NCBI GenBank assembly: GCA_023664305.1 | Contig: JAMPFT010000005.1 | Location: 62,001-126,000, forward strand | Reading direction: 5' to 3' | DNA length: 64,000 nt | DNA from: a bacterium | GTDB taxonomy: Bacteria > Bacillota > Clostridia > Lachnospirales > Lachnospiraceae | Shown: positions 1 to 16,634 of the stretch, piece after piece | Numbering within the stretch: the first letter of the stretch is position 1 | How the letters are laid out: each line of letters starts with the position of its first letter | The notes under the pieces: model-generated | The model's input: the letters and a program-made list of their open reading frames with translations, nothing else | Told to the model about the DNA's origin: nothing | Database searches by the model: none | Translations under genes and position numbers: made by a program

Positions 1-2
1 AG

Positions 3-356
3 GAGCAGGGACGGCTGTTCGAAACCTACAATATCGGCGGGCACAATGAGAAGCAGAACATAGAGATCATTCAGACGATTCTGGAGGTTTTACAGGAGAT
101 GCTGCCGGAGGGGGATCCCAGAAAGGCTTATGTCAACGGGGATCTGATCACCTATGTGGAGGACCGCAAGGGACACGACAGAAGATACGCCATCGCGCCG
201 GATAAGATCAGGAGGGAGATCGGATGGGAGCCGGAGACGATGTTCCGGGAGGGAATCCGCAAAACAATCCGTTGGTATTTTGAGAACGAGGAATGGATGA
301 AAAATATGACCAGCGGCGATTACCAGAAATATTACAGTGAGATGTACGAAAAATAA
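3..356 (+). CDS. rfbB: dTDP-glucose 4,6-dehydratase, C-terminal part (5' end outside window)
   Basis: The reading frame is open from the window edge (first full codon at base 3) to TAA at 354-356, giving the last 117 residues. RfbB converts dTDP-glucose to dTDP-4-keto-6-deoxyglucose, the second step towards dTDP-L-rhamnose, in the cytoplasm. What shows it is the YNIGGHNEKQNI stretch near the start, typical of the C-terminal substrate-binding half of RfbB, then DRKGHDRRYAI and a closing IGWEPE..F..GI..T..WY pattern, standard for this extended-SDR family. The NAD-binding Rossmann half and the catalytic Tyr-Lys lie upstream of the window. rfbA follows after 87 bp and rfbC two genes later, which supports the assignment. 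No rfbD (final reductase) is seen here; I infer that it lies upstream. Confidence 0.95.
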   Translation, partial: EQGRLFETYNIGGHNEKQNIEIIQTILEVLQEMLPEGDPRKAYVNGDLITYVEDRKGHDRRYAIAPDKIRREIGWEPETMFREGIRKTIRWYFENEEWMKNMTSGDYQKYYSEMYEK

Positions 357-443: not shown

Positions 444-1313
444 ATGAAGGGAATTATTCTGGCCGGGGGCTCGGGAACAAGGCTGTATCCGTTGACAAAA
501 GCGATTTCCAAGCAGATTATGCCGGTATATGACAAGCCGATGATTTATTATCCGCTTTCCATCCTGATGCTGGCGGGTATCCGGGAAGTGCTGGTTATTT
601 CCACACCCAGAGATCTGCCGGTATTTGAGGAGCTTTTGGGCGACGGTCATCAGCTGGGAATGCAGTTTTCCTACGCCGTGCAGGAAAGCCCCAGAGGGTT
701 GGCGGACGCTTTTATCATCGGGGCGGATTTTATCGGCGACGACAGAGTGGCGCTGGTGTTGGGCGACAATATTTTTTACGGACAGAGCTTTTCCAGGGTG
801 CTGAGAGAGGTGGCGCTGCGGGAAAAGGGAGCGACTATTTTCGGCTATTATGTGCGGGATCCCAGAGAGTACGGCGTTGTAGAGTTTGACGAAAGCGGAA
901 AGGCTGTTTCCATCGAGGAGAAGCCGGAAAATCCCAAAAGTAACTACGCGGTGCCAGGCCTGTATTTTTACGATAACGACGTGGTGGAGATCGCCCGGAA
1001 CGTGAAGCCCTCCGCCAGGGGCGAGATCGAGATCACGGCGGTAAACAACGAATATCTGCGCAGGGGGGATCTTTATGTGGAAACCCTGGGGAGAGGCTTT
1101 GCATGGCTTGACACGGGCAACCATGACGCGTTATTGGATGCCTCGGATTTTGTGGCGGCTTTCCAGAAGAGGCAGGGACTTTATATCTCCTGTATCGAGG
1201 AGATTGCCTATAAGAGGGGATTTATCGACAAGGAACAGCTGATCAGACTGGCGGAGCCGCTGATGAAAACAAATTACGGAAAATATTTGGTTGAGGTAGC
1301 AAATGGACTCTAA
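444..1313 (+). CDS. rfbA: glucose-1-phosphate thymidylyltransferase
   Basis: This enzyme makes dTDP-glucose from dTTP and glucose-1-phosphate, the first committed step to dTDP-L-rhamnose. At 289 residues it has normal length. The N-terminus carries the nucleotidyltransferase signature [18 protein letters not shown], followed by [16 protein letters not shown], and later [16 protein letters not shown] and [20 protein letters not shown], all characteristic of RmlA/RfbA. The ATG is preceded by AAAAGGAGGAGTT, a strong ribosome binding site. The 3' end overlaps the next gene by 11 bp, which suggests translational coupling. Glucose-1-phosphate could be supplied by the phosphoglucomutase at 16891. 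Confidence 0.97.
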
Positions 1314-2675: not shown

Positions 2676-3224
2676 ATGGGGAAAATAACGGTAGAAACCT
2701 GTGAGATAGAGGGGCTGAAGGTGATCACGCCCGCGGTTCACGGAGACGCCAGGGGGTACTTTTACGAGTCCTATCACTACGAGGCTTATAAGGAGGCGGG
2801 GATTTCGGACATTTTTGTGCAGGATAATCAGTCCGCGTCGAAAAGGGGAGTGCTGAGAGGACTTCATTTTCAGATCGAGCATCCTCAGGCGAAGCTGGTA
2901 CGGGTGATCAAAGGGGAAGTGTTCGATGTGGCGGTTGATCTGCGGAAGGGCTCCGCTACTTACGGGAAGTGGTACGGAGTAATTCTTTCGGAAGAGAACA
3001 AGAAGCAGTTTTATGTGCCGAAAAATTTTGCCCACGGATTTCTCGTGCTTTCGGATTACGCGGAATTTTGTTATAAGTGTACGGAGTTTTATCACCCCGG
3101 AGACGAGGGGGGAATTATTTACAATGACCCGGCCATCGGCGTGGAGTGGCCGATTCCGGAGGGGATGGAACTGATTTTTTCCGAGCGGGACACGAAGTGG
3201 GGCGGAATCGACAGCCTGACGTGA
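2676..3224 (+). CDS. rfbC: dTDP-4-dehydrorhamnose 3,5-epimerase
   Basis: This cupin-fold enzyme epimerises C3 and C5 of dTDP-4-keto-6-deoxyglucose, the third step to dTDP-L-rhamnose. The frame is open further upstream, but the ATG at 2676 is chosen because GAGGAGAGGGAGAAG stands directly before it and the resulting 182 residues match the family length. Visible family motifs are DARGYFYESYH, VQDNQSASKRGVLRGLHFQ (with the catalytic-type His), VRVIKGEVFDVAVDLRKGS, KNFAHGFLVLSD and YNDPAIGVEWP. The 116-bp gap before it carries two copies of a short dispersed repeat. Confidence 0.97.
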   Translation: MGKITVETCEIEGLKVITPAVHGDARGYFYESYHYEAYKEAGISDIFVQDNQSASKRGVLRGLHFQIEHPQAKLVRVIKGEVFDVAVDLRKGSATYGKWYGVILSEENKKQFYVPKNFAHGFLVLSDYAEFCYKCTEFYHPGDEGGIIYNDPAIGVEWPIPEGMELIFSERDTKWGGIDSLT

Positions 3225-3341: not shown

Positions 3342-4328
3342 ATGAAGATAAGCAGGAAGAGCGGAACCGCCATATTTTCCCTTTTGGGACTGGCTCTGGC
3401 GGTCATAATCATTGCACATCAGAATACGGCGCCGGATGTGGATCCGCGGCTGGAGCTGATCAAGAAAATTATATCCTGTGCGGCGATTCTGGCTGCCTGC
3501 CTCATCTTTGCGAAGTGGTACGAAAAGTTTACGACGCTTCCGGCGGAACTGTTCCAGAACAGGCATTTGATCTGGAAGCTGGCAAAAAACGATTTTAAGA
3601 AACGGTACGCGGGTTCCTATATGGGGGCGGTGTGGGCCATGGTGCAGCCTGTGGTGACGGTTGCCATGTATTACATTGTCTTTGACAAGATCATGGGGAA
3701 CGGAATCAACCGGGGGACGGGAGAAATCCCCTTTGTGCTTTTTCTGACGGCGGGACTTGTGCCGTGGTTTTATTTCAGCGAGGCGCTGAATAACGGAACC
3801 AACGCCATGCTGGAATACCATTATCTGGTCAAGAAGGTGGTATTTAAGATCAGCATTCTCCCGATTATCAAGATTATTGCCGCCACCTTCATCCATGTGT
3901 TTTTTGTGCTTGTGATGCTGATCGTTGCGGCGTGTTACGGCTATTATCCCACGGTTTATACGCTTCAGATCTTTTATTACAGCGCCTGTCTGTTTGTTTT
4001 TGTTTTGGCTTTGTGCTATACAACCTGTTCTATTGTGGTTTTTTTCAGAGATTTATCCCAGATTATCAACATTGCGCTGCAGATCGGGATGTGGGCGACC
4101 CCCATACTTTGGAACATAGATAATCTGAGCGCCAAATGGGTCGTGATTTTGAAGCTGAACCCGTTGGTGTATATCGTGAACGGATACCGGAGCGCGATCT
4201 GCGAAAAGCAGTGGTTTTTCCAGGATTTTTTCTCCACCATGTATTTCTGGATCGTCACCGTGGTTCTGTTCGGGCTGGGCGCGGCGGTGTTTAAGAGGCT
4301 GAAGGTACATTTTGCGGATGTGCTGTAA
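3342..4328 (+). CDS. wzm: ABC-2 type polysaccharide exporter permease (Wzm-like)
   Basis: A 328-residue membrane protein. Two extra N-terminal hydrophobic segments (residues 9-27 and about 45-62) precede the standard ABC-2 module of about six helices that begins at NRHLIWKLAKNDFKKRYAGSYMGAVWAMVQP. That sequence, with the cytosolic amphipathic helix and Y-x-G-S-x-L/M-G pattern, is typical of Wzm/TagG permeases, which export lipid-linked polysaccharide or teichoic acid across the plasma membrane. The partner ATPase is the gene at 5866, one gene away rather than adjacent. The two extra N-terminal helices are not part of the usual ~260-residue Wzm. The gene downstream starts 13 bp after its stop. 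Confidence 0.92.
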   Translation: MKISRKSGTAIFSLLGLALAVIIIAHQNTAPDVDPRLELIKKIISCAAILAACLIFAKWYEKFTTLPAELFQNRHLIWKLAKNDFKKRYAGSYMGAVWAMVQPVVTVAMYYIVFDKIMGNGINRGTGEIPFVLFLTAGLVPWFYFSEALNNGTNAMLEYHYLVKKVVFKISILPIIKIIAATFIHVFFVLVMLIVAACYGYYPTVYTLQIFYYSACLFVFVLALCYTTCSIVVFFRDLSQIINIALQIGMWATPILWNIDNLSAKWVVILKLNPLVYIVNGYRSAICEKQWFFQDFFSTMYFWIVTVVLFGLGAAVFKRLKVHFADVL

Positions 4329-4341
4329 ACAGGAGGGTATT

Positions 4342-5841
4342 ATGGGAAAAATAAAAAAGGCGGTAAATTGGAAGCCGGATATGCGTCTGGTGGCGGGGCT
4401 CGCGGTGGCAGCGCTTCTGTTGCTGCTGATTCCTCTGCTGCGGATATCAATTTACACGGCGCCCTATTATGACGATTATATACAGGGAAGAATTGTAAAA
4501 GGTTTTTTAAGAGAGGAAAACAGTCTGAGGAGTGTCTGGCGGGGAGCTGTGTATAACGTGCGGACATCCTGGTATGCGTGGCAGGGGACATATTCAGCGA
4601 CTTTCTTTAATTCTCTTGTGCCCGTTGTATGGGGAGAACAGTATTATTTTCTGGGTGCTGTTTTTCTGATTTTGCTCCTTCCGGCGTCTGTTTTTGTGCT
4701 GGTGGGAGTGCTGGTCAGGAGCGTACTGAAGGCAGATCGGGTATCCTGCGTCGCCATGCAGGCTGTTACGGCGGCGACGGTTGTGGTGCTGCTTTATTCG
4801 CCGCAGCAGGGCTTTTACTGGTATGTGGGAGGGATGTGTTATGTGGGAATGCACTCCTTCCTGATGTTGACGACTGCCGCATGGATCAAATTGCTGACGG
4901 GAGCAGGTAAGGTAAAAACAGTGCTATTGTTTCTGTGGACACTGTTAGGGGCGTTGCTGGCGGGAGGCGCTAATTTTGTGACAGGCCTGCAGGGGATTTT
5001 GATCTGTCTGGGGATGGTCGTGTTTGGTGCAATTCTTGGCAGGAAGCGTACTTGGCTGTTGGCTCCGTCTCTCCTGGTTTACGGAGCCGGTTTTTATATG
5101 AACGTATCCGCGCCCGGAAATCAGATCAGGGCGGCTCATTATGTGGGCTGGGGTTATCCGCCCGCGGAAGCTGTCCTGCGTTCTTTTCTGGAAGCGTTTC
5201 GGCATCTGGGAGAATTTTCCGGATGGATCACGGTGGCAGTGATGGTGCTTTTTGCACCGATTATCTGGTATATGCTGGGGAAAACGGAAATTACTTTTCG
5301 TTTTCCGGCGCTTGTGCTTGTCGGATCCTTCTGCCTGTACGCGACGGGCTTTACGCCGACTCTTTACGCCATGGGACACGGAGGATACGGCAGAGTTTTG
5401 AACTGCGTAAAAATCACCTACCAGATTCTTTTGATAATCAATGAAGTCTATTGTCTGGGGTGGCTCAGGGGCTATCTTGCAAAGAGGGGGAAGACAGACT
5501 TCCGGGTGGGCGCGCCCTGGTGGTTTTACGGACTGGTCGGAGCGGGAATGCTGGTTATCTTTGCCTTTTTTTCGCGCAGTCAGGCGGGATGTTATTCTTC
5601 TTACGGCGCGTACTATTTTGTGCATACGGGAGAGGCGTATAATTTCTATCAGGAGTATTTAAACAGAATAGAGACGATTGTAAACGGCGGGGATGATGTA
5701 GTTGTGGAGCCCTACCACTATAAACCCTGGTTCCTTTGCATAGAGGATCTGAGCGATAATCCTGACGCCGAGAAAAACCAGGCCATGGCGCAGTGGTACG
5801 GTAAAAATTCTATCACCTGTGTGGCGGAGGATGCGGAGTAG
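4342..5841 (+). CDS. polytopic membrane protein, DUF6056/GT-C-like, in exporter operon
   Basis: A 499-residue protein with roughly ten hydrophobic segments. The ATG at 4342 is chosen because AGGAGGG lies just upstream; an in-frame ATG at 4312 would overlap wzm. After the first helix comes an exterior loop beginning APYYDDYIQGR, with adjacent acidic residues, then a WQGTYSATFFNSLVP stretch. A conserved acidic pair in the first external loop followed by many helices is the general layout of GT-C glycosyltransferases and of uncharacterised Firmicutes families such as DUF6056. It lies between the permease and the ATPase of the exporter, so I infer that it modifies or elongates the same polymer from a polyprenyl-linked donor. 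I do not recognise a specific enzyme. Confidence 0.65.
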   Translation: MGKIKKAVNWKPDMRLVAGLAVAALLLLLIPLLRISIYTAPYYDDYIQGRIVKGFLREENSLRSVWRGAVYNVRTSWYAWQGTYSATFFNSLVPVVWGEQYYFLGAVFLILLLPASVFVLVGVLVRSVLKADRVSCVAMQAVTAATVVVLLYSPQQGFYWYVGGMCYVGMHSFLMLTTAAWIKLLTGAGKVKTVLLFLWTLLGALLAGGANFVTGLQGILICLGMVVFGAILGRKRTWLLAPSLLVYGAGFYMNVSAPGNQIRAAHYVGWGYPPAEAVLRSFLEAFRHLGEFSGWITVAVMVLFAPIIWYMLGKTEITFRFPALVLVGSFCLYATGFTPTLYAMGHGGYGRVLNCVKITYQILLIINEVYCLGWLRGYLAKRGKTDFRVGAPWWFYGLVGAGMLVIFAFFSRSQAGCYSSYGAYYFVHTGEAYNFYQEYLNRIETIVNGGDDVVVEPYHYKPWFLCIEDLSDNPDAEKNQAMAQWYGKNSITCVAEDAE

Positions 5842-5865: not shown

Positions 5866-7353
5866 GTGATTCGAGCGAAAGTACGGGAAATTGATGTCCC
5901 TGCCATTGAGGTTTTAGACGTAGTAAAGATTTATAAGCTGTATGACAGGCCGCGGGACAGGGTAAAGGAAGCCTTCGGGTTCGGGAAAAGGCAGATGTAT
6001 AAGCCGCATTATGCCTTAAACGGCGTCAGTATGTGTATTTTTCGGGGGGAAACGGTAGGGATCATCGGAACCAACGGCTCGGGGAAATCCACAATTCTGA
6101 AGATCATTACAGGAGTCCTGACGCCGACCTCGGGGTCTGTAAATGTGGACGGACGGATCTCGGCGCTTCTGGAGCTGGGAGCAGGCTTTAACCAGGAGTA
6201 TAACGGGATTGAAAATATATACCTGAACGGCACGATGATGGGCTTTTCCGAAAAGGAGATTGACGAAAGACTTCCAGACATTCTGGAGTTTGCCGATATC
6301 GGAGATTATGTCTATCAGCCGGTGAAAACCTATTCCAGCGGCATGTTTGTGCGGCTTGCGTTCGCGGTAGCCATCAATATCGATCCGGAAATCCTGATCG
6401 TGGACGAGGCGCTTTCCGTGGGGGACGTCTTTTTTCAGGCAAAATGCTATCACAAATTTGAGGAGTTTAAGAAGCTGGGAAAGACGATTGTCTTTGTCAG
6501 TCATGACTTGAGCAGCATCAGCAAATACTGCGACAGGGTTTTCCTGCTAAACAAAGGGACGCTTTTGGGCGAGGGATCGCCGAAGGAGATGATCGACGCC
6601 TATAAAAGAGTGCTGGTAGGGCAGTATGAGACGCCGGACGAGCAGGAGAGCGACGGTCTGTTGGAGGATCCGCAGCTGCGGCAGGCAGCCGGGGGCGGCA
6701 GAGGCGGAGTGCAGAAGGCCGGAAATCCTGCGGACGGCACAGGCAGAGGGCAAGGAGCCGGAAGCCCCGTGGGGAAGAGTGCGGATTCTGCGGGCGGCAG
6801 AGGGCAAAGAGCCGGAAGTCCTGCGGGGAAGAGTACGGATTTTGCGAGCGGCAGAGGACAGAAAGTGTGGAGCTCTGCAGGCGGCGCGGAGCGGAAAAAC
6901 CCGGACGCGCTGGAATACGGAACGGGTCAGGCGAGAATAGAGGAGTATTATGTGACGGATGACCGCGGGGTGCGGACGACGGCAGTGATCAAGGGAAGCG
7001 AGTTTACGCTGCACATGCGGGTGAAGTTTCTGGAGCATATCCCGGCGCCGATTTTTGCCTTTTCCGTGAAAAACGTAATCGGAACGGAGATCACGGGGAC
7101 AAATACGATGATTGAGAAAGCTTTTCTGGAGAGCGTGGAGGCCGGGCAGGAAAAGAACATCACCTTTACGCAGAAGATGAGTCTTCAGGGAGGCGAGTAT
7201 CTGCTTTCTCTGGGGGTGACCGGCTATAACGGCGACACGTTTGAGGTATATCACAGACTTTATGACGTCCTGAATATCACGGTGGTTTCGGATAAAAACA
7301 CGGTGGGATATTACGATATGGATTCCGTGGTGACGGTCACGGATGCGAGGTAG
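5866..7353 (+). CDS. wzt: polysaccharide exporter ATPase with C-terminal glycan-binding domain (Wzt-like)
   Basis: A 495-residue ATPase energising Wzm. I take GTG at 5866, with GGAGG five bases upstream, as start; a TTG at 5854 is possible. Residues 1-250 are an ABC domain of the TagH/Wzt kind: Walker A GTNGSGKST (68-76), signature YSSGMFVRLAFAVA, Walker B ILIVDEALSVGD, and FVSHDLSSIS. From about residue 355 to the end lies a Wzt-type beta-sandwich (RIEEYYVTDDRGVRT...GYYDMDSVVTV), which in Gram-negative systems recognises the capped end of the glycan. Between them is a Gly/Arg/Ser-rich linker with an 18-residue repeat. The next gene starts 3 bp downstream and encodes a methyltransferase/kinase-like protein, as expected if the cap is the export signal. 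Confidence 0.93.
   Translation: MIRAKVREIDVPAIEVLDVVKIYKLYDRPRDRVKEAFGFGKRQMYKPHYALNGVSMCIFRGETVGIIGTNGSGKSTILKIITGVLTPTSGSVNVDGRISALLELGAGFNQEYNGIENIYLNGTMMGFSEKEIDERLPDILEFADIGDYVYQPVKTYSSGMFVRLAFAVAINIDPEILIVDEALSVGDVFFQAKCYHKFEEFKKLGKTIVFVSHDLSSISKYCDRVFLLNKGTLLGEGSPKEMIDAYKRVLVGQYETPDEQESDGLLEDPQLRQAAGGGRGGVQKAGNPADGTGRGQGAGSPVGKSADSAGGRGQRAGSPAGKSTDFASGRGQKVWSSAGGAERKNPDALEYGTGQARIEEYYVTDDRGVRTTAVIKGSEFTLHMRVKFLEHIPAPIFAFSVKNVIGTEITGTNTMIEKAFLESVEAGQEKNITFTQKMSLQGGEYLLSLGVTGYNGDTFEVYHRLYDVLNITVVSDKNTVGYYDMDSVVTVTDAR
6742..6861 (+). repeat. 54-bp in-frame tandem repeat in the Wzt linker
   Basis: GGCAGAGG starts at 6742, 6796 and 6850, a period of exactly 54 bp (18 codons). The units encode GRGQ-x-AGSP-x-GKS-x-D-like peptides. 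There are two full copies and the start of a third. As the unit is a multiple of three, copy-number change would alter linker length without a frameshift. Confidence 0.8.
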
Positions 7354-7356
7354 TTT

Positions 7357-9411
7357 ATGGCGGAAGAGATTGGCAGGGTAAAACTGGATTACAGCAGATA
7401 TTCGGGGAAGGATTTTTACAGCGACGGAAGCGTGGAGGATGAGCTTCTGGAGATCGTAAAAACGCATTCTCCCTCGGAGTATGCCGCAGTGATAGAGGAG
7501 CGGAAAAGCTGGCCGGTGCTTTATCATCTGTCGCCTCTTCGGGAGAATATTGTGGACTGGCTTCCCATGAAAAAAACGGACAGGGTATTGGAGGTTGGCA
7601 GCGGCTGTGGCGCGATCACGGGAGCGCTTGCGCGGAAAGCGGGAAGCGTGACCTGTGTGGAGCTTTCGGAGAAGAGAAGTCTGATCAACGCTCACAGGCA
7701 CAGGGATTGCGATAACGTCACGATTCATGTCGGGAATTTCAGGGACATTGAACCGGATCTGGAGAAGGACTATGATTATATTTGTCTGATCGGGGTATTT
7801 GAGTACGCGCAGAGTTATATCGGCGGAGAGACGCCGTTTCATGATTTTATCAGGATCCTGCTTCCACATCTGGCGGAGGGCGGCAGACTCGTCATTGCCA
7901 TCGAAAACAAGTACGGGCTGAAATATTTTGCGGGCTGTAAGGAGGATCATCTCGGCGAGTGGTTTTCCGGCATCGAGAATTATGCGGGCGGCGGAGGCGT
8001 TCGCACCTTCAGCCGCAGGGGGCTGGAAAAGATATTCAAAAGCTGCGGGATAAAGGAAACACATTTTTATTATCCGTATCCGGACTATAAATTTATGACA
8101 TCGCTGTACAGCGACGCCTATCTGCCCGGAAGGGGGGAGCTTACAAATAATCTCCGCAACTTTGACAGGGACAGAATGCTTTTGTTCGACGAGAGCAGCG
8201 CCTTTGACGGTATCCTGGAGGACGAGCTGTTTCCGGTGTTTTCCAATTCTTTTCTGGCGGTGATCGGAGGCGCGTCGGAAATCAAGTATGTGAAATATTC
8301 CAATGACAGGGCCTCGGAGTATTCCGTAAAAACGCAGATCTGCAGGAATGCGGAAAAGGAAATTCAGGTTCGGAAATATCCGATGAGCGAGGCGGCCAGA
8401 GAACATGTGCGCGGGATGGCGCTGGCGTATGAGAGACTTTTGGAAAAATACGCGGGAGGCAGACTGGAAATTAATCAGTGCAGTCTGGCGGAGGAAGGGG
8501 AAAGTGTTTTTGCTCAGTTCCCGTATGTGTACGGGACACCGCTTTCCGAGTTGATGGATAAATGTCTGGAGAAGGACGATCTGGAGGGATTTTACGGATA
8601 TTTCCGGGAGTATGTGGAGCGCATCGGGTATAACAGCGAGTATCCGGCGGCGGATTTTGACCTGATTTTTTCGAATATTCTTGTAAATAAAGATAAATGG
8701 ACGCTGATCGATTACGAATGGACCTTCGGCAAGCCTATCAAGACGGAGGAGCTTGCATTTCGGGCGGTTTACTGTTACCTTTTGGAAAATCCCGCAAGAG
8801 AAAAGATAAATCTTGATCTGATCCTGAAAGAACTGAATTTATCGGAGGAGGACGCGGAGAATTATCGGAATCAGGAACGGGATTTCCAGCAGTTTGTCAC
8901 GGGAAATCATGTACCCATGACGAAAATGCGGGATCTGTTGGGGTATCGGATGACGGTTCCCCAAAAGTGGATCGGGAAGTACGCGGATTCCGGGGATGTG
9001 AACCGTGTGCAGATTTACGAGGACAGGGGAAGCGGTTTTTCGGAGGAAGCGTCTTATTTTGTCCCTGAGGCCTATCAGGGAGAAAACCGGATAGAACTGA
9101 AGCTTTCGGTCAGCGGGGAGGTTCAGACGCTGCGGATTGACCCCTCCTTTGACAGCTGTGCGGTCAGAATCGAGGAGATGACCTTTAACGGAGAGGCAGT
9201 GCCTTTCGACAAAAAGAAGATATTGCAGGTCAACGGCAGAATCGCCCGGCCTGCGACGCTGATTTTTCCGACAGTCGATCCGAATATCTGTATTTCGCTG
9301 CGGGAGCTGAACAGGCAGGCTGAAAATGTGCTTTATGCGCGTATGGAGATCGTGCGGCTTGCCCCTGCCATGGCGCGGGAGATGGCCGACGCGGTAAAAA
9401 AGCTGATTTGA
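7357..9411 (+). CDS. methyltransferase plus kinase-like polysaccharide-capping protein (WbdD-like)
   Basis: A 684-residue cytoplasmic protein. Residues about 60-230 are a SAM-dependent methyltransferase: VLEVGSGCGAITGALA is motif I, followed by VTCVELSEKRS and a YDYICLIGVFEY motif. Residues about 300-500 look like a kinase of the aminoglycoside-phosphotransferase/WbdD type: a QVRKYPM lysine, then FDLIFSNILVN (Asp-x4-Asn catalytic loop) and TLIDYEWTFG (metal-binding Asp, DFG-like). A beta-rich domain fills about 560-684. In E. coli O9a, WbdD phosphorylates and methylates the non-reducing end, stopping growth and marking the chain for Wzt. The same domain order directly beside a Wzt with a C-terminal domain suggests a cap-dependent system here. 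A long coiled-coil ruler as in WbdD is not obvious. Confidence 0.8.
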   Translation: MAEEIGRVKLDYSRYSGKDFYSDGSVEDELLEIVKTHSPSEYAAVIEERKSWPVLYHLSPLRENIVDWLPMKKTDRVLEVGSGCGAITGALARKAGSVTCVELSEKRSLINAHRHRDCDNVTIHVGNFRDIEPDLEKDYDYICLIGVFEYAQSYIGGETPFHDFIRILLPHLAEGGRLVIAIENKYGLKYFAGCKEDHLGEWFSGIENYAGGGGVRTFSRRGLEKIFKSCGIKETHFYYPYPDYKFMTSLYSDAYLPGRGELTNNLRNFDRDRMLLFDESSAFDGILEDELFPVFSNSFLAVIGGASEIKYVKYSNDRASEYSVKTQICRNAEKEIQVRKYPMSEAAREHVRGMALAYERLLEKYAGGRLEINQCSLAEEGESVFAQFPYVYGTPLSELMDKCLEKDDLEGFYGYFREYVERIGYNSEYPAADFDLIFSNILVNKDKWTLIDYEWTFGKPIKTEELAFRAVYCYLLENPAREKINLDLILKELNLSEEDAENYRNQERDFQQFVTGNHVPMTKMRDLLGYRMTVPQKWIGKYADSGDVNRVQIYEDRGSGFSEEASYFVPEAYQGENRIELKLSVSGEVQTLRIDPSFDSCAVRIEEMTFNGEAVPFDKKKILQVNGRIARPATLIFPTVDPNICISLRELNRQAENVLYARMEIVRLAPAMAREMADAVKKLI

Positions 9412-9424
9412 GCAGGAGCGAACG

Positions 9425-11806
9425 GTGGGAATAAAAGAACGGATCAAACAGGTATTGACGGAAAAAGAGGATAGGAGATACGGTCGGCTGTTGGCGGAAA
9501 GGCAGAGGACTTATGAGGCATGGCTTGCCGGGCAGGAAAAGCTTTGGGCGGAAGAGAACGGGGAAGATCGGGGCGAACCGGACAAAGCAGGGAGTGTGGC
9601 CAGGCAGGGGCAGGGTCGGGTTTCGGAAGAGTTTGTGTTGATCCAGTCCTGCGACGGGACCGTTGCTCCGTGGGCCTCGAAAAATATCGAACGTTATTTT
9701 AAAGAAAATCCTGAAGTCCTGGTAGTTTATTGTGACGAGGATGTCAGGACGGCGGAGGGCGAGCCCGGTTTCCCGTGGTTTAAGCCGGACTGGTCTCCCG
9801 ATTTTTTGGACAGCTGCCTGTATTTTGGAGGACTTACGGCGGTGCGGCGAAGCCTGTGGGAGGAGATGAAAAGCCTTTATGGGAGCGCCGGTTCCGGGGA
9901 GCGGCAGACGTGTTTTGAGAAAAAAGAAAACGGACGTTATTTTGTGATCAATAGGGAGGCTTACGAGGAATGGCTGCATCTCTGCGTCGAGGACGGTTAT
10001 AAAAGGGGCAGCGTTTCGATCGGACATATTCCGCAGATTTTGTTTCACGCCGAAAGCCGGGAGGAGCAGGAGCGCTTTCTGGAGGAGTCGGACTATCTGA
10101 GGAGAAAGAGGCGGGGGCTTCTGGAGGATTTTTGCGGCCGTTATACGGGCGCAGCGCGGACGGATGAAGCGCAGGCGGATAGCCGTGGCGAGGACGGAGA
10201 GCAGCCGAACGGCTCGCAGGCAGACAGACCGCAGGAGGGCAGACGGAGCGCAGACGGAGCGCAGACGGGCGGCTGGCAGGCGGGCGAACCGGCGGTGTCG
10301 GTGGTGATTCCCTCGAAAGACCACCCGGATCTTCTACGGCAGTGTGTGGAAAGCGTGAAGGTATCCGGCGAGGGTATTCCGTTGGAGATCATTGTCGTAG
10401 ATAACGGGAGCGGAGCCGACAACAGGGAAATGATAGAAAAGATGCTGCGGGAAGAGGCTGGAGACGGCGCAGGCAGCAGCACGGGCGGAAACAGCTTATC
10501 GATTCAGTATATGTATCAGCCTATGGCCTTTCACTTTTCCCGAATGTGCAATCTGGGCGCGGAAAGGGCAAGGGGAGAACTCCTGTTGTTTTTAAATGAT
10601 GACGTTATATTGAGGGATGCCTGTATTCGGGAGATGGCGGCCCGGGCGTCCAGAGACTATACGGGGGCGGTGGGCTTAAAGCTTTTGTATCCGGAGACGG
10701 AGCGGATCCAACATGCGGGAATTACGAATCTTCCGATGGGGCCGGTACACAAGCTACAGTCCCTGCGGGACGACAGAGATTATTACGGGAAGGCAAATAA
10801 CAGCTGCCGGAATTTTCTGGCGGTGACGGCGGCCTGCCTGATGGTGGAAAGACGGAAATTTGTGGAGGCGGGAGGCTTCTGCGAGGAACTGCCGGTGGCG
10901 TTTAACGATGTGGAGCTTTGCTTTCATCTGTACGAATTGGGATATCATAACGTGTGTTTGAATAATATTCATGCTTATCATTGCGAGTCTGCAAGCCGCG
11001 GGGACGACGAGTCGCCCGAAAAGCTGAGACGGCTGCTGGAAGAGAAAAGGAGGCTGTACGAACGTCATCCTGGGCTGGAGGGAAGGGATCCGTATTATTC
11101 CGTTTTCCTGAACAGGGAGGGGCTGGACGTGAGGATTGAACCTTTCTACAGGACGGCGGGGAACAGAGCGCAGGAAGTTAAACTGTTGAAGCCGGAAACC
11201 GAATGGTCAAAATGCAGACAGGATGAGTGCTTGCTTGTGCGGGTGGAGGATATCCGCGGGGAAAGTATTGTCGGATGGAGTGTTGTACTGGGAGATGATA
11301 ACGCATGTTATGAAAAATGCTTTCTGCTGCGCCGATTAAGGGAAAAGACGGAAGAGCAAAGAACGGAAGAGCAAAGAACGGAAGAGCAAAGAACGGAAGA
11401 ACAAAGAACGGAAGAGCAAAGGCTGGAAGAGCAAAGGCCGGACGAACAGAAATTGGAAGAATATCGTCTGGAAGGGCGGAGAGCGGAAGGACAGAAACTG
11501 GAGGCCCAGGGATTGGAAGGACAAAGATCGGGAAAAGGGCAGGAACGCGCAGGGAAAAACGGCGAAGAGAAAAGCGACGAAGAGAAAAGCGACGGCATTG
11601 TCTACGGAATTGCTCTGGAGGGGCAGCTTCGCCCGGATCTGGAGGAAAATATGCCGGATCAGAAAAATGTGGCGCTGAGCGGGTTTTGGTTAAAGCTGTC
11701 CGCGGACGACCTTCCGTTCGGCAGCTATCGGATCGGGGTAAGCGCCCGCAATCGGGTGACGGGACTAAGGCTGGTAAACTGGAGTAACAGGACGATAGAG
11801 ATATAG
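9425..11806 (+). CDS. large GT2 family glycosyltransferase with low-complexity inserts
   Basis: A 793-residue protein starting at GTG 9425, with AGGAGCG upstream. Residues about 55-240 contain a divergent GT2-like stretch (VLIQSCDGTVAPWASKNIE, VVYCDEDV, FKPDWSPDFLDSCLYFGGL). A Gln/Gly/Ala/Asp-rich linker (about 240-290) leads to a full GT-A domain: VSVVIPSKDHPDLLRQCVESV, IEIIVVDNGSG, ARGELLLFLNDDV (DxD-like), VTAACLMVERRKFVEAGGF and FNDVELCFHLYELGY. It resembles rhamnosyltransferases that build rhamnan chains. Residues about 640-720 are a Glu/Gln/Arg repeat tract (TEEQR units), followed by a small beta-type C-terminal domain. I infer a polymerising or repeat-unit transferase using dTDP-rhamnose or another NDP-sugar; the exact linkage cannot be read from sequence. 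Confidence 0.85.
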   Translation: MGIKERIKQVLTEKEDRRYGRLLAERQRTYEAWLAGQEKLWAEENGEDRGEPDKAGSVARQGQGRVSEEFVLIQSCDGTVAPWASKNIERYFKENPEVLVVYCDEDVRTAEGEPGFPWFKPDWSPDFLDSCLYFGGLTAVRRSLWEEMKSLYGSAGSGERQTCFEKKENGRYFVINREAYEEWLHLCVEDGYKRGSVSIGHIPQILFHAESREEQERFLEESDYLRRKRRGLLEDFCGRYTGAARTDEAQADSRGEDGEQPNGSQADRPQEGRRSADGAQTGGWQAGEPAVSVVIPSKDHPDLLRQCVESVKVSGEGIPLEIIVVDNGSGADNREMIEKMLREEAGDGAGSSTGGNSLSIQYMYQPMAFHFSRMCNLGAERARGELLLFLNDDVILRDACIREMAARASRDYTGAVGLKLLYPETERIQHAGITNLPMGPVHKLQSLRDDRDYYGKANNSCRNFLAVTAACLMVERRKFVEAGGFCEELPVAFNDVELCFHLYELGYHNVCLNNIHAYHCESASRGDDESPEKLRRLLEEKRRLYERHPGLEGRDPYYSVFLNREGLDVRIEPFYRTAGNRAQEVKLLKPETEWSKCRQDECLLVRVEDIRGESIVGWSVVLGDDNACYEKCFLLRRLREKTEEQRTEEQRTEEQRTEEQRTEEQRLEEQRPDEQKLEEYRLEGRRAEGQKLEAQGLEGQRSGKGQERAGKNGEEKSDEEKSDGIVYGIALEGQLRPDLEENMPDQKNVALSGFWLKLSADDLPFGSYRIGVSARNRVTGLRLVNWSNRTIEI
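11348..11530 (+). repeat. 15-bp in-frame tandem repeat (TEEQR units) in the GT gene
   Basis: ACGGAAGAGCAAAGA starts at 11348, 11363, 11378 and 11393, then again with one change at 11408, and decays through 11423 and 11438 into related units up to about 11530. The period of 15 bp equals five codons. The nearly perfect first copies look recent and may vary in number between strains. Confidence 0.9.
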
Positions 11807-11925: not shown

Positions 11926-14082
11926 ATGGAGCAGACAGATTACAGGGAAGAATATGAGAGAGAACACCTGAAATGTGCGGAGCTGGCGGGACGTATCGCC
12001 GATTTGGAGGCAAAAAACGAGGAGCTGGAGTGGAAGCTGAACCGTATCAAAAAGAATCCGCTCTGGAGAGCGAGTAAACCGGCGCGGAATGTGATCCACT
12101 GGATGATTCGGCAGCGGGACAGGCTGAAAAACTGCGGCGGCCCGAGGGGTGTGTTGCGCAAGCTGGATTATAAAAAGCGGGAAAGGGAAGCCATGAAGCA
12201 ATTCGGGACGGAAAGCTTCCCCGACGAGGCGCAGGCGGCCAAAGAGCGGGGGACGGTATTCCCGAGGATGGTAAAGATCAGTATCCTTGTGCCCCTTTGG
12301 AACAATCAGCGGCAGTTTCAGATCGAGATGCTGGATTCCGTGATGAATCAGACCTATCAGAACTGGGAGCTTTGTCTGGCGGACGGCTCGGACGAAGAGC
12401 ACGCCTATATCGGCGAGATCTGTCAGGAGTACGCGCAGAAGGCGGGCGGTCGTGTCGTCTATCGGCATTTGGAAAAAAACGAAGGGATTTCCGGCAATAC
12501 CAACGCATGTCTTGCAATGGCCTCGGGGGAATATATCGGTCTGCTGGATCAGGACGATATCCTGCATCCCAGCGTTCTCTACGAGTATGTAAAGGCGATT
12601 AACGAGCAGGGAGCGGATTATTTATATTGTGACGAGACTACCTTTAAGGGCAATGATATCAACCGTATGCTGACCATGCACTTTAAGCCGGATTACGCGC
12701 CGGACAATCTGCGGGCAAATAATTACATCTGTCATTTCAGCGTTTTCCGACGCACATTGCTGGAGGGGAACGAGCTGTTTCGCACAAAGTATGACGGCAG
12801 TCAGGATCATGATATGATACTGCGGCTTACGGACAATGCGGAAAAAATCGTTCATGTGCCCAGGCTGATGTACTATTGGAGGAGTCATTCCGGCAGCACG
12901 GCGGCAGGCATTGAGGCGAAGCCCTATGCCATTGAAGCGGCCAAATCGGCTGTGGCGGAGCATCTTCGCAAGCACGGCTTCGAGCATTTTAAGATCGAGA
13001 GCACACGGGCCTTTGAGACGATCTTTCGGATTCGCTATCAGATGATCGGAACGCCGAAAATTTCTATCGTGATTGCAAATAAAGACCATGCGGAGGATCT
13101 GCGCCGCTGCGTCTCCTCGATTCTGGAAAAGTCAACCTACGACAACTACGAGATTGTCATTGTGGAAAATAACAGCGCTACGAAAGAAATCCGGGACTAT
13201 TACGGCGAGCTGCTGGGAGAAGAGTATCGGGGAGCGGGGGAGAGTATACGGGAGAAGGGTATACAGGAAGAGAGTATTCAGGAGAAGAGAGAAGGGCGGG
13301 AGCCTGAGAAAAATCCGAAAGAGGAGAGAACAAACCGGGACGAAAGCGATCATACCGAAAAGGATACCGACAAGCCGGACGGCGGCGCGCAGCACAGCGC
13401 GGATAATAAAATAACAATCGTTACTTATAAAGGGGATTTCAATTATTCGGCGGTAAACAATCTGGGAGTGCGATATGCCACAGGAGAGTACATCCTGCTT
13501 TTAAATAATGACACGGAAGTCATTACCGTAAACTGGATGGAAGAGCTTTTGATGTATGCTCAGCGGGAAGACGTAGGGGCGGTTGGTGCCAAGCTGTACT
13601 ATGAGGACAGGACAATCCAGCACGCCGGCGTGGTGATCGGGCTGGGAGCCCACAGAACGGCGGGACACACCCATTACAGGCAGCACCGTCAGAACCTGGG
13701 ATATATGGGACGACTGTGCTACGCACAAAACGTAACGGCTGTTACGGGAGCCTGCCTGATGGTGAAAAAGAGCCTGTATGAGGCGGTGGGAGGGCTGGAC
13801 GAGGAGTTTGCCGTCGCGCTGAACGACGTGGATTTCTGCCTGAAGCTGCGGGAGAAAGGACTTCTGAATATCTTTACGCCCTTCGCGGAGCTTTACCATT
13901 ACGAATCCGCCTCCAGAGGCTCGGACATTAATGGGGGAGGAAACGCGGAACGCTATAACCGGGAGAGCGAAAAATTCCGGGAGAAATGGAAGAATCAGCT
14001 GGAGGCGGGCGATCCGTACTATAACCGCAACTTTTCTCTTGACAGAAGCGATTTTTCGCTGAAAGTGACTGACCGGAAATAG
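11926..14082 (+). CDS. double-domain GT2 glycosyltransferase (rhamnan-type)
   Basis: A 718-residue protein with an N-terminal coiled coil (residues about 5-45, ELAGRIADLEAKNEELEWKL) and two GT-A domains. Domain 1 begins KISILVPLWNNQRQFQIEMLDSV, with DQDD as the metal motif. Domain 2 begins KISIVIANKDHAEDLRRCVSSI, with LNNDTEV as the DxD-like motif, and ends with TGACLMVKKSLYEAVGGLDEEF and LNDVDFCLKLREKGL. Tandem GT2 proteins of this kind act in rhamnan and O-antigen assembly, alternating two linkages. A charged Glu/Arg/Lys-rich insert of about 55 residues splits domain 2 between VENNSATKEIRDYYGELL and ITIVTYKGDFNYSAVNNLG, an unusual place for an insertion. The start is preceded by ACAGGAGAGAAC. 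Confidence 0.88.
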   Translation: MEQTDYREEYEREHLKCAELAGRIADLEAKNEELEWKLNRIKKNPLWRASKPARNVIHWMIRQRDRLKNCGGPRGVLRKLDYKKREREAMKQFGTESFPDEAQAAKERGTVFPRMVKISILVPLWNNQRQFQIEMLDSVMNQTYQNWELCLADGSDEEHAYIGEICQEYAQKAGGRVVYRHLEKNEGISGNTNACLAMASGEYIGLLDQDDILHPSVLYEYVKAINEQGADYLYCDETTFKGNDINRMLTMHFKPDYAPDNLRANNYICHFSVFRRTLLEGNELFRTKYDGSQDHDMILRLTDNAEKIVHVPRLMYYWRSHSGSTAAGIEAKPYAIEAAKSAVAEHLRKHGFEHFKIESTRAFETIFRIRYQMIGTPKISIVIANKDHAEDLRRCVSSILEKSTYDNYEIVIVENNSATKEIRDYYGELLGEEYRGAGESIREKGIQEESIQEKREGREPEKNPKEERTNRDESDHTEKDTDKPDGGAQHSADNKITIVTYKGDFNYSAVNNLGVRYATGEYILLLNNDTEVITVNWMEELLMYAQREDVGAVGAKLYYEDRTIQHAGVVIGLGAHRTAGHTHYRQHRQNLGYMGRLCYAQNVTAVTGACLMVKKSLYEAVGGLDEEFAVALNDVDFCLKLREKGLLNIFTPFAELYHYESASRGSDINGGGNAERYNRESEKFREKWKNQLEAGDPYYNRNFSLDRSDFSLKVTDRK

Positions 14083-14091
14083 GAGAGGGCC

Positions 14092-15555
14092 ATGCTTTTT
14101 AATTCTTATGTGTTTATTTTATTTTTTCTGCCTCTGACGCTCCTGCTGTATTATGGACTAAACCGTCATGCTCATTTTGAGCTGGCGAAGGCTGTGCTGA
14201 TCCTGATGTCCTTATGGTTTTACGCTTTTTTTCATTGGAGTTATGTTTTTATTTTGCTGGCGAGTATCCTGCTGAATTACGGCATATCCGCATGGATGCA
14301 GAAAAAGACGGGAAATCCCGGTTTCCGCAGGTTTCTGCTGATTACCGGTATTGTTTTGAATCTGGGAGTGATTGGATATTATAAGTATCTGGATTTCCTG
14401 ATCGGCAATATTAACGGCCTTTTCGGTAAGCAGATTCCGCTTCTTCATATTTTGATGCCGTTGGGAATCAGTTTTTTTACTTTTCAGCAGATTTCCTGGC
14501 TGGTAGATTCCTGGCGGGGAGAAATCGGGCGGCGTTCTTTTACGGATTACGCTCTTTTTGTGACCTTCTTTCCGCAGCTTGTGGCGGGGCCGATCGTAAC
14601 CGCGCAGGAGATGCTGCCGCAGTTTTCGGATCCGGCGAGGAAGCAATTCAGCCAGGAAAAATTGGCTTGGGGGGGATATCTGTTTTCGATCGGCCTGTTC
14701 AAAAAGGTAATTTTGGCGGATACCTTAGGAGCGGGCGTCGATTGGGGATTTGCTGCGCCGGCGAGCCTGTCCGGTCTGGATACGATGATTGTCGCGCTTT
14801 TATATACCCTTCAGCTCTATTTTGATTTCAGCGGCTATTGCGATATGGCCTGCGGAATAGCCGCAATGTTTCATATGGATCTGCCCGTCAATTTTAATTC
14901 TCCCTATAAAGCGGTATCGGCAGCGGATTTTTGGAAGAGATGGCATATGTCTCTGACCCGGTTTCTTACAAGATATGTTTACTATCCCCTTGGAGGCAGC
15001 CGGTGCGGAAAGGCAAGGACATTTTGCAATATTTTTATTGTCTTTTTGCTCAGCGGTTTATGGCATGGCGCTAACTGGACGTTTCTTCTATGGGGAGTGT
15101 TACATGGTATAGCGCAGATTTTGTATAGGATATTTGCGGGGATCTGGGATCGCTTACCCAAAGCCGTCTCCTGGGCCGCTACCTTTCTCTTTTTGAATCT
15201 GAGCTGGATTGTTTTTCGGGCGGATTCCGTTGCGGATGCGATGGTGATGTTCCGCAATATTTTTTCCGGCGGGCCGGGAGGAATCAGCGGTGGATTGCTG
15301 CAATGCTTTGACGTGCTGGAATTTACTTATCTGGAAGAACATGTAGGTTTTTTGGGGAAAATAGCGGATGCGTTGCCCTCGCTGCATCTGTGCATTCTCC
15401 TTGCGGTTTCTCTGGGAATTGTACTGTTTGGAAAAAACTGCTATGAGAAAAAATTTGTTCCCAGTGCGCCGAAAGCGATAGGCTGTATTGTAATGCTGAC
15501 ATGGTCGATACTGTCGTTGTCCGGTTTGTCCAGCTTTCTTTATTTTAACTTCTGA
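14092..15555 (+). CDS. MBOAT family membrane-bound O-acyltransferase (AlgI/DltB-like)
   Basis: A 487-residue protein with about ten membrane segments. FNSYVFILFFLPLTLLLYY at the start, DYALFVTFFPQLVAGPIV, LYFDFSGYCDMACGIAAMF, NFNSPYKAVSAADFWKRWHMSLTRFL and LSGLWHGANWTFLLWGVLHG are classical MBOAT/AlgI landmarks; His325 is the expected catalytic histidine. Relatives pass acetyl groups across the membrane to an extracellular glycan or teichoic acid. The next gene encodes a likely SGNH partner, as in AlgI-AlgJ/X and PatA-PatB pairs. It starts 9 bp after the preceding glycosyltransferase gene, so it is in the same transcription unit. Confidence 0.95.
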   Translation: MLFNSYVFILFFLPLTLLLYYGLNRHAHFELAKAVLILMSLWFYAFFHWSYVFILLASILLNYGISAWMQKKTGNPGFRRFLLITGIVLNLGVIGYYKYLDFLIGNINGLFGKQIPLLHILMPLGISFFTFQQISWLVDSWRGEIGRRSFTDYALFVTFFPQLVAGPIVTAQEMLPQFSDPARKQFSQEKLAWGGYLFSIGLFKKVILADTLGAGVDWGFAAPASLSGLDTMIVALLYTLQLYFDFSGYCDMACGIAAMFHMDLPVNFNSPYKAVSAADFWKRWHMSLTRFLTRYVYYPLGGSRCGKARTFCNIFIVFLLSGLWHGANWTFLLWGVLHGIAQILYRIFAGIWDRLPKAVSWAATFLFLNLSWIVFRADSVADAMVMFRNIFSGGPGGISGGLLQCFDVLEFTYLEEHVGFLGKIADALPSLHLCILLAVSLGIVLFGKNCYEKKFVPSAPKAIGCIVMLTWSILSLSGLSSFLYFNF

Positions 15556-15581: not shown

Positions 15582-16634
15582 ATGAAAGCAAGTGTCTGGA
15601 ATAAAATAGTGTTTGGGGCAACGGGAGGGATTCTGGCTTTGGTGGCGGCAGTCACCGCATGGATCGATCCGTTCCTTCATTATCATGCTCCGCTGGAGGG
15701 ATTGCAATATCCGTTGAAGGACGAACGGTATCAGAACGACGGGATCATGAGAAATTTTTCTTATGATGCGATTATTACGGGGACAAGCATGTGTCAGAAT
15801 TTTCTGGTCTCGGAGTTTGACGAGTTATGGGGGACAACGGCGATCAAGGTTTGTTATTCCGGAGGGAGCTATAAGGAGATAGACGAAAGCGTCAGAAGAG
15901 CGCTGGAATATCAGAATGATGTGAAATATGTGTTGAGAAGCCTGGATAGTAATCGGCTGAATTATCCGGCGGACCAAAATGAATACGAAGGATATCCGAC
16001 CTATTTGTACGACAGGAATCCGTTTAATGATGTAAATTATCTGCTGAATAAAGAAGTGATCCCGAAAACGGTAGCGGTAATCAATTATACCAGATCGGGG
16101 CAGAAGACGCCGGATTGGGACGAATACGGAAGCTGGAGCAGATACCGGACGTTCGGCAGAGAAGAGGTTTTTCGAACCTGGCAGATGTTCGAGGAGCGGG
16201 AAGAGATTTATACTTTGCAGGAGGAAGACTACAGCCGGATTCGGGAGAATATTCAGAGGAATGTTCTGCAGACAGCCCGGGAAAACAGGGACGTGACCTT
16301 TTATCTCTTTTTTCCGCCGTATAGTATCTGCCATTGGAATACTCTGGTGCGGACAAAGCAGCTCGAGGCACAGCTGGATGCGGAGAAATATGCGGTAGAG
16401 CTTTTGCTGAAAGAGGAAAACATACATGTATTTTCCTTTGCGGATCAGATTGATATTATTTCGGATCTCAACAATTATTCGGATGCTCTGCACTATGGAG
16501 AATGGGTCAACTCGGATATCTTGAAATGGATCCGGGAGGGAAAGGGAGAACTGACGGAAGAGAATTATTCCGAATGGTTTCGGCAGATAGGGGAATTTTA
16601 TCGGAACTACGATTTTGCGGAGCTTGCGCAATAA
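15582..16634 (+). CDS. SGNH-like extracellular partner of the MBOAT acyltransferase
   Basis: A 350-residue protein with one N-terminal hydrophobic anchor (residues 8-26); the rest is probably extracytoplasmic. Two motifs mark the SGNH fold: GTSMCQNF with Ser69 in the position of the GDS/GTS nucleophile, and DALHYG with Asp301 and His304 in the DxxH spacing of the catalytic pair. It directly follows the MBOAT gene (26 bp gap, AAAAAGGTG ribosome binding site). I infer that it takes the acyl group from the MBOAT protein and transfers it to the exported polysaccharide, as AlgJ/AlgX or PatB do. The acyl donor and target sugar are unknown. Confidence 0.75.
   Translation: MKASVWNKIVFGATGGILALVAAVTAWIDPFLHYHAPLEGLQYPLKDERYQNDGIMRNFSYDAIITGTSMCQNFLVSEFDELWGTTAIKVCYSGGSYKEIDESVRRALEYQNDVKYVLRSLDSNRLNYPADQNEYEGYPTYLYDRNPFNDVNYLLNKEVIPKTVAVINYTRSGQKTPDWDEYGSWSRYRTFGREEVFRTWQMFEEREEIYTLQEEDYSRIRENIQRNVLQTARENRDVTFYLFFPPYSICHWNTLVRTKQLEAQLDAEKYAVELLLKEENIHVFSFADQIDIISDLNNYSDALHYGEWVNSDILKWIREGKGELTEENYSEWFRQIGEFYRNYDFAELAQ

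What the first reader, a model, noticed from the sequence alone, without database searches (positions are those of the whole stretch)
5866..9411. Cap-dependent ABC polysaccharide export (Wzt C-domain plus WbdD-like capper) in a Gram-positive
Seen: a Wzt-like ATPase with a C-terminal beta domain lies 3 bp from a protein with a methyltransferase motif (VLEVGSGCGAITG) and a kinase-like catalytic loop (FDLIFSNILVN, IDYEW). Known: in E. coli O8/O9a, WbdD caps the chain by methylation/phosphorylation, and the Wzt C-terminal domain reads the cap. Inferred: the same termination-export logic operates here with a wall-attached rhamnan-type glycan, as LCP and MBOAT/SGNH genes are also present. The capper's C-terminal beta domain replaces the coiled-coil ruler of WbdD.
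Basis: partly seen in the sequence, partly recalled or inferred. Interest (0 to 1): 0.72.

Follow-up and report, generated by a model that had tools for sequence, protein, structure and literature searches.

The report
Glycan-capping export operon in gut Lachnospiraceae
A Gram-positive gut bacterium carries the kind of sugar-chain capping enzyme and cap-reading export pump known from one Klebsiella O-antigen, which suggests that many gut Lachnospiraceae end and export a rhamnose-containing surface sugar chain by adding a phosphate-type cap.

Summary
The genes are there: a Wzt ATPase with a glycan-binding-type C-terminal domain lies 3 bp before a 684-aa methyltransferase-kinase. The protein is not WbdD-like: profile comparison with E. 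coli WbdD finds only a methyltransferase patch. It is homologous over about 550 columns to a Gram-negative protein of the Klebsiella O7 ORF6 type, whose methyltransferase and unusual kinase cap rhamnose with methyl-phosphate. Its last domain sits where ORF6-O7 has a carbohydrate-binding module. The coiled coil is not replaced: it is at the start of a downstream dual-GT2 protein (11926-14082), homologous to the polymerase half of the O7-type protein. One relative (L083) has these modules in one chain. In 200 sampled family genomes, 96 of 100 strong Wzt_C domains lie within 5 kb of a capper match, against 1 of 36 weaker ones. Relatives split or fuse methyltransferase, kinase, coiled coil and glycosyltransferases. 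Cap chemistry, gating and wall attachment are inferred. Gram-positive precedents exist (Geobacillus WsaE; the C. difficile Ox247 cyclophosphate cap), so this is a new variant of a known kind.

The parts
5866..7353 (+). wzt: ABC-transporter ATPase with a C-terminal Wzt_C carbohydrate-binding-type domain (about 6877-7350); longest frame from TTG 5854
   Evidence: Pfam ABC_tran and Wzt_C E=5.6e-41; profile of 20 C-domains hits 2r5o and other Wzt-type chains in PDB; GGAGG before GTG 5866
7357..9411 (+). capper (proposed chain terminator): methyltransferase (residues 1 to about 300), O7-type kinase (about 301-530), C-terminal domain at the place of the ORF6-O7 CBM (about 531-684)
   Evidence: Pfam methyltransferases; hhalign to Gram-negative O7-type proteins P0004 and P0003; residue conservation
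8257..8946 (+). kinase domain within the capper; K340, D435, N440, D452 (codons starting 8374, 8659, 8674, 8710)
   Evidence: 22-member alignment A3 with the D435 and N440 columns invariant; free-standing kinase ORFs in relatives
8947..9408 (+). C-terminal domain of the capper, collinear with the CBM-position region of the O7-type protein; fold not verified
   Evidence: alignment with P0004 566-688 (0.6% alone); no PDB match; a coiled coil in the last 170 residues of 0 of 78 cappers
3342..4328 (+). wzm: ABC-2 membrane subunit
   Evidence: Pfam ABC2_membrane E=4.3e-15; present in 70 of 70 loci with enough upstream DNA, window included
4342..5841 (+). DUF6056 protein between wzm and wzt (longest frame from TTG 4312)
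   Evidence: Pfam DUF6056 E=2.9e-11; in 34 of 70 loci
9425..11806 (+). GT2 glycosyltransferase (GTa)
   Evidence: Pfam Glycos_transf_2 E=7.4e-16; the next long + strand ORF after the capper is a GT in 56 of 66 loci
11926..14082 (+). GTb: N-terminal coiled coil (residues 1-45) then two GT2 modules (motifs DQDD at 208 and NND at 527); proposed polymerase carrying the ruler
   Evidence: coiled-coil scan; Pfam GT2; 33% identity over 608 aligned columns with the GT2-GT2 half of P0004, E=1e-96; motifs
14092..15555 (+). MBOAT O-acyltransferase
   Evidence: Pfam MBOAT E=5.6e-33
15582..16634 (+). unassigned protein behind MBOAT, at the place of an acyltransferase partner
   Evidence: no Pfam match
444..1313 (+). 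rfbA-type nucleotidyltransferase
   Evidence: Pfam NTP_transferase E=6.7e-76
1..356 (+). 3' end of an rfbB-like gene that begins upstream of the window (L031:19274)
   Evidence: read directly; not run against Pfam on its own
2676..3224 (+). rfbC-type dTDP-4-dehydrorhamnose 3,5-epimerase (longest frame from GTG 2487)
   Evidence: Pfam dTDP_sugar_isom E=3.6e-71
21341..22747 (+). polyprenyl-phosphate sugar-1-phosphate transferase (initiation)
   Evidence: Pfam Bac_transf E=8.4e-73
22763..23890 (+). LCP (LytR-CpsA-Psr) glycopolymer ligase
   Evidence: Pfam LytR_cpsA_psr E=1.3e-32

Best explanation
The operon makes and exports a capped, lipid-linked, rhamnose-containing glycan. A Bac_transf enzyme starts the chain on a lipid carrier (inferred). 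GT2 enzymes, above all GTb with its coiled coil and two GT2 modules, polymerise it with dTDP-rhamnose (inferred from homology to the rhamnosyltransferase half of the O7-type protein). The 684-aa protein, a free-standing version of the ORF6-O7 terminator half, phosphorylates the non-reducing end and methylates the phosphate, stopping growth (inferred). The Wzt C-terminal domain binds the capped end so that Wzm/Wzt exports only finished chains (inferred). LCP may then fix the chain to peptidoglycan (weakly inferred). Shown by computation: gene order, homology, conserved catalytic residues, co-occurrence, and the modular split and fusion of the same parts.
For: Homology: hhalign of the 55-member capper profile against the Pseudomonas asturiensis plasmid protein P0004, 100% over 553 columns, E=1.3e-39, and against Citrobacter braakii P0003, 99.9% over 463 columns. 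P0004 has Y28, Y66, G91, G93, E112 and Y158, the six SAM-pocket residues named for ORF6-O7 (PMC11231755), at the same numbers, and its kinase Asp at 443 against the published D441. The matching capper residues Y21, Y56, G81, G83, Y150, D435, N440 and D452 are the same in 55 of 55; E102 is E in 17 and D in 38. Architecture: L083 fuses capper, coiled coil and GTb in one ORF; split and fused forms beside wzt. Polymerase: GTb is 33% identical to the GT2-GT2 half of P0004, E=1e-96, with the DXDD and NXD motifs of ORF6-O7. Coupling: 96 of 100 strong Wzt_C domains lie within 5 kb of a capper match against 1 of 36 weaker ones (window's own genome included; Fisher p=7.6e-27); 99 of the 103 genomes with a capper place printed carry a strong Wzt_C. 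The Wzt_C profile hits 2r5o, 8dku and 5hno in PDB. Rhamnose: rfbA and rfbC here, an RmlD homologue elsewhere in the genome, E=4.3e-109; on the Citrobacter plasmid four genes annotated rffG, rfbA, rfbC and rfbD precede ABC permease, ABC ATPase, capper, GT, GT.
Against: No ORF6-O7 sequence was available, so the link rests on P0004, P0003 and residue numbers. The kinase has no Pfam match and only weak PDB matches (best E=0.054 for the kinase profile A3; GCN2 0.0053 for the whole profile A1). The capper C-domain has no PDB match, only 0.6% hhalign probability with P0004 when taken alone, and does not resemble Wzt_C (0.1%). The Citrobacter protein seems to lack that domain: its match ends at residue 543 of 649. 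The scan found no coiled coil in P0004. In P0003 the DFG-type Asp is Glu. Terminator and coiled coil are on different chains here, so a ruler would need a complex. Four strong Wzt_C genes lack a listed capper place within 5 kb. Nothing but an LCP gene in the cluster speaks for wall attachment.
Confidence: 0.72

Rival explanations
1. The methyltransferase-kinase decorates the glycan (or another cytoplasmic sugar-lipid) at internal or several places, with no termination role, and export is not gated by the modification.
For: Acceptor and position cannot be read from sequence; the cluster also has MBOAT decoration.
Against: Tight linkage to the strong Wzt_C class (96 of 100 against 1 of 36), fusion to the polymerase through a coiled coil in L083, and homology to a family whose studied member is a terminator needed for export (PMC11231755).
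Confidence: 0.15
2. The cap is another phosphate chemistry (plain phosphate or a cyclic phosphate) or separate O-methyl and phosphate groups; the logic is the same.
For: C. difficile Ox247 S-layer glycan ends in 2,3-cyclophosphoryl-rhamnose (PMC6254364, passages); some relatives carry methyltransferase and kinase as separate proteins.
Against: Methyltransferase SAM residues are conserved and the studied family member makes methyl-phosphate.
Confidence: 0.2
3. As first proposed: a WbdD-family capper.
For: Same domain order, methyltransferase then kinase, and same place beside wzt as the 708-aa protein of E. coli HS, which I take to be WbdD by its length and place.
Against: BLASTP finds nothing significant; hhalign matches only 83 methyltransferase columns and no kinase.
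Confidence: 0.03
4. The Wzt tail is a structural or regulatory domain, and the transporter is an ordinary teichoic-acid-type exporter.
For: The ATPase half scores with teichoic-acid exporter models (E=1.7e-78 and 6.6e-65, both below their curated cut-offs).
Against: The tail profile hits solved Wzt C-domains and E. coli HS O9-family Wzt, 98% over 146 columns; all 77 loci with enough upstream DNA keep the tail.
Confidence: 0.08

Closest known systems
Klebsiella pneumoniae O7 ORF6 terminator half (ORF6-O7-N; PMC11231755)
   Same: Methyltransferase, unannotated APH-like kinase, then an extra domain (CBM in ORF6-O7); same SAM and kinase residues by way of P0004; rhamnose; a GT2-GT2 polymerase with DXDD and NXD. 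The plasmid relatives sit behind an ABC permease and a tailed ABC ATPase
   Different: Here the terminator ends after the extra domain; the coiled coil and GT2-GT2 form a separate protein two genes downstream; the host is Gram-positive with LCP. A ribofuranosyltransferase, present in O7, was not looked for
E. coli O9/O9a WbdD
   Same: Methyltransferase-kinase next to wzt with a tail; capping logic
   Different: No sequence relation in the kinase; WbdD carries its own C-terminal coiled coil (PMC3482155, part of section 4)
Geobacillus stearothermophilus WsaE with Wzm/Wzt (PMC2943079, passages)
   Same: Gram-positive rhamnan; methyltransferase with two rhamnosyltransferase modules; ABC export; cap recognition by Wzt predicted
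   Different: Cap is 2-O-methyl and no kinase is mentioned in the passages read; glycan goes to an S-layer protein. Its sequence was not compared here
C. difficile Ox247 S-layer glycan (PMC6254364, passages)
   Same: Gram-positive, ABC export, terminal phosphate cap on rhamnose; authors suggested the O9a-like role
   Different: Cyclophosphate cap, protein-linked; the capping enzyme is not named in the passages read
Ruminococcus gnavus glucorhamnan (review PMC12413058, passages)
   Same: Gut rhamnose-rich polysaccharide said to appear anchored to peptidoglycan by phosphodiester; that R. gnavus is Lachnospiraceae is recalled
   Different: No cap or terminator mentioned in the passages read; its cluster was not examined here

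Membership tests
O7-type (ORF6-O7-N) methyltransferase-kinase terminator | Full-length homology to the family | tested here: met
   hhalign 100% over 553 columns with P0004 and 99.9% over 463 with P0003; P0004 placed in the family by six of six SAM residues at the same numbers; ORF6-O7 itself not available
O7-type (ORF6-O7-N) methyltransferase-kinase terminator | SAM residues Y, Y, G, G, E, Y | tested here: met
   Five invariant in 55 of 55, the sixth E in 17 and D in 38
O7-type (ORF6-O7-N) methyltransferase-kinase terminator | Kinase catalytic Asp (D441 in ORF6-O7) | tested here: met
   D435 in 55 of 55 and in 22 of 22 of A3
O7-type (ORF6-O7-N) methyltransferase-kinase terminator | APH/AmiN-like fold of the kinase | not testable with these tools
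   Structure prediction switched off
O7-type (ORF6-O7-N) methyltransferase-kinase terminator | Ig-like CBM after the kinase | tested here: inconclusive
   A domain is in place and collinear with P0004 but matches nothing by profile
O7-type (ORF6-O7-N) methyltransferase-kinase terminator | Coiled coil in the same protein | tested here: not met
   0 of 78 cappers have one in the last 170 residues; it is ahead of the GT2 modules of GTb (55 of 59). One fused relative, L083, has both on one chain
O7-type (ORF6-O7-N) methyltransferase-kinase terminator | Adds methyl-phosphate to terminal rhamnose | not testable with these tools
   needs an enzyme assay
WbdD family | Sequence homology in methyltransferase and kinase | tested here: not met
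   methyltransferase patch only
Wzt with cap-reading CBM | Wzt_C domain fused to the ATPase | tested here: met
   E=5.6e-41; PDB 2r5o E=4.7e-15
Wzt with cap-reading CBM | Specific binding of the capped end | not testable with these tools
   needs a binding assay
LCP-attached wall glycan | Transfer of this glycan to peptidoglycan | not testable with these tools
   only an LCP gene in the cluster

The most novel reading that the evidence does not exclude
About half of the 200 family genomes sampled (mostly one per genus) would make a phosphate-capped, ABC-exported surface glycan by an O7-type terminator. Terminator, kinase, coiled coil and polymerase are freely split and fused modules, and in the window the length-setting coiled coil has moved to the polymerase. 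The cap would act as a release ticket before attachment to a Gram-positive wall.
Probability: 0.45. Interest if true: 0.7.

Novelty: new variant of a known kind. Interest (0 to 1): 0.56.

Why it matters
It would extend a checkpoint known from Gram-negative O antigens to a large group of gut Gram-positives, and give a genetic handle on the chain length and display of their rhamnose-containing surface glycans. The natural splits and fusions also offer a way to test whether terminator and ruler must be on one chain.

Tried and rejected
WbdD membership was tested and rejected. Pfam gave no kinase, and none is among the 25 of 39 NCBIfam families shown for the capper. Capper C-domain: no PDB match, no resemblance to Wzt_C. 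The Citrobacter permease-ATPase-capper stretch has no near (megablast) match in the E. coli collection, so no named serotype came from there. The terminator census by Mann et al. 2019 (Glycobiology; seen only as a reference in PMC11231755) is not held and may list Firmicutes cases. Paper searches listed no paper that I recognised from title and abstract start as an O7-type terminator in Gram-positives; most listed papers were not opened.
Full report
What is there. The window is contig C40:62001-126000 of a 3.58 Mb genome. The nearest relatives of the 684-aa protein in the named genome collection are mostly in records titled Lachnospiraceae or Acetatifactor, with 92% identity to one MAG titled Roseburia sp. 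and 67% to Acetatifactor muris DSM 23669. On one strand lie an rfbB-like gene (begins upstream), rfbA, a GH25 muramidase, rfbC, wzm, a DUF6056 protein, wzt, the 684-aa capper, GTa, GTb, MBOAT, an unassigned protein, a phosphoglucomutase, two GT2 enzymes, a Bac_transf initiating enzyme, LCP and another GT2. An RmlD homologue sits elsewhere in the genome.

The Wzt tail. Pfam Wzt_C matches at E=5.6e-41. A profile of 20 tails (A5) hits PDB 2r5o (E=4.7e-15), 8dku and 7k2t (4.3e-10), 6o14 (4.1e-9) and 5hno (2.1e-4); the only other match was a ribosomal protein at E=0.07. That 2r5o is the E. coli O9a domain, 8dku an Aquifex transporter and 5hno the O12 domain is recalled; the call names them only as ABC-transporter components. 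The E. coli HS O9-family Wzt matches the profile at 98% over 146 columns.

The capper. Pfam sees only the methyltransferase. The A1 profile gives a weak PDB kinase match over 302-447 (GCN2, E=0.0053). tblastn in 72,556 plasmid records finds three: Pseudomonas asturiensis (27.6% over 21-596, E=5e-40), Citrobacter braakii (27.9% over 21-475, E=2e-31), and a Deinococcus match over the methyltransferase only. Both good hits lie directly behind an ABC permease and an ABC ATPase, whose ATPases match the window Wzt from end to end, tail included. The Citrobacter stretch reads rffG, rfbA, rfbC, rfbD, (a transposase gene on the other strand), permease, ATPase, capper, GT, GT. hhalign confirms the homology over nearly the whole chain for P0004 (553 columns) and over methyltransferase and kinase for P0003 (463 columns). 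The 708-aa WbdD of E. coli HS does not match outside a methyltransferase patch.

Which family. Kelly et al. 2024 (PMC11231755; outline, section 10, section 11 in full, first part of section 13 and some passages read) describe K. pneumoniae O7 ORF6: methyltransferase, a 223-residue kinase domain that was unannotated, an Ig-like CBM, a coiled coil and two GT2 rhamnosyltransferase modules; it adds methyl-phosphate to position 3 of a terminal rhamnose, and D441A abolishes phosphorylation in vitro and surface O antigen in vivo. P0004 carries the six SAM residues at exactly the published numbers and a kinase Asp two positions off, and ends in two GT2 modules. I therefore place the capper in this family; the step from P0004 to ORF6-O7 itself is an inference.

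The ruler. A coiled-coil scan with recalled COILS parameters found segments at 473-517 and 556-594 of WbdD, inside its published coiled-coil region (PMC3482155), and gave some segment in 6 and 5 of 50 shuffles of the whole capper and GTb. It finds a coiled coil at residues 1-45 of GTb; in 55 of 59 GTb orthologues within the 115 residues ahead of the first GT2 module; and in the last 170 residues of 0 of 78 cappers. A weaker segment at 480-512 of the capper lies in the kinase part. Against expectation it found none in P0004, although ORF6-O7 is described as having one. GTb is 33% identical to the GT2-GT2 half of P0004 and has DQDD and NND where ORF6-O7 has DXDD and NXD. In L083 the capper (residues 1-689) runs into a segment of the GTb N-terminal type and GTb itself (714-1362) in one ORF, 63% and 76% identical to the window proteins. 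So the window has the ORF6-O7 chain cut between its extra domain and coiled coil, with GTa between.

Module shuffling. I fetched 20 regions with capper matches, 18 of them from more distant family members. In 19 of 20 a tailed Wzt, a methyltransferase and a kinase are found together; in 16 of these the methyltransferase follows wzt directly, in 3 (L124, L130, L132) a GT gene lies between; L128 has neither wzt nor kinase. The forms seen are methyltransferase-kinase, separate methyltransferase and kinase, methyltransferase plus kinase fused to GTs, and all fused (1238-1890 aa). The regions were picked by their capper matches, so this shows forms, not frequency.

Linkage. Among 200 family genomes, 130 have a capper match at E<=0.001, a good part of them weak and probably generic methyltransferases. 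Wzt_C is in 121. Of 100 Wzt_C domains at 130 bits or more, 96 lie within 5 kb of a listed capper match (86 within 1.5 kb); of 36 weaker ones above the family cut-off, 1 does (p=7.6e-27). The exceptions are in G034, G081, G116 and G066. In close relatives, chosen for their capper and so not independent, 77 of 77 loci with enough upstream DNA have the tailed Wzt (72 of 77 immediately upstream), 70 of 70 have wzm, 34 of 70 DUF6056, and 56 of 66 a GT next. In a phylum-wide sample it is rare: 13 of 398 genomes at E<=1e-10, four of them in the window's own family; the nine others match mostly over the methyltransferase half.

What is known already. Capped, ABC-exported rhamnan was proposed in a Gram-positive for Geobacillus WsaE (2-O-methyl; PMC2943079, passages), and a phosphate cap was found on the C. 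difficile Ox247 S-layer glycan, with an O9a-like role suggested (PMC6254364, passages). New here, as far as the searches named under Tried and rejected show, are the O7-type terminator in Lachnospiraceae, its spread, the split ruler and the LCP context.

Verdict. Observation confirmed; logic likely right; family and ruler statements corrected; chemistry and wall attachment open.

Noticed in passing
L031:2354-3418 and 3558-4688 (G000:C40, upstream of the window): A NeuB-family synthase (Pfam E=9.2e-90) next to a gene that looks by eye like PseG, so a nonulosonic acid pathway may lie about 16 kb upstream of rfbB; whether it feeds this glycan is unknown.
   Followed up: partly
window about 6680-6890, 11324-11435 and 13207-13395: Low-complexity inserts in three neighbouring genes: Gly/Ser-rich repeats in the Wzt linker, EEQRT repeats in GTa, and a charged insert in GTb that P0004 lacks.
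   Followed up: no
window 6547-8406, minus strand: A 619-aa open frame antisense to wzt and the capper; probably a by-product of codon use, not tested.
   Followed up: no
window 1303-2559 and L031:15532-18969: Two GH25 muramidase-like proteins flank the rhamnose genes; the window one is confirmed by Pfam, the other was read by eye.
   Followed up: partly
L108:6301-9933 (also L106, L109): A 1211-1221 aa protein lies between wzt and the capper; in L108 it is a GT-like half followed by a full GTb, another arrangement of the same modules.
   Followed up: partly
L128:6558-8825: A 756-aa protein with a weak match to the capper methyltransferase beside GTs but no wzt match in the fetched stretch; perhaps a different use of the domain.
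   Followed up: no
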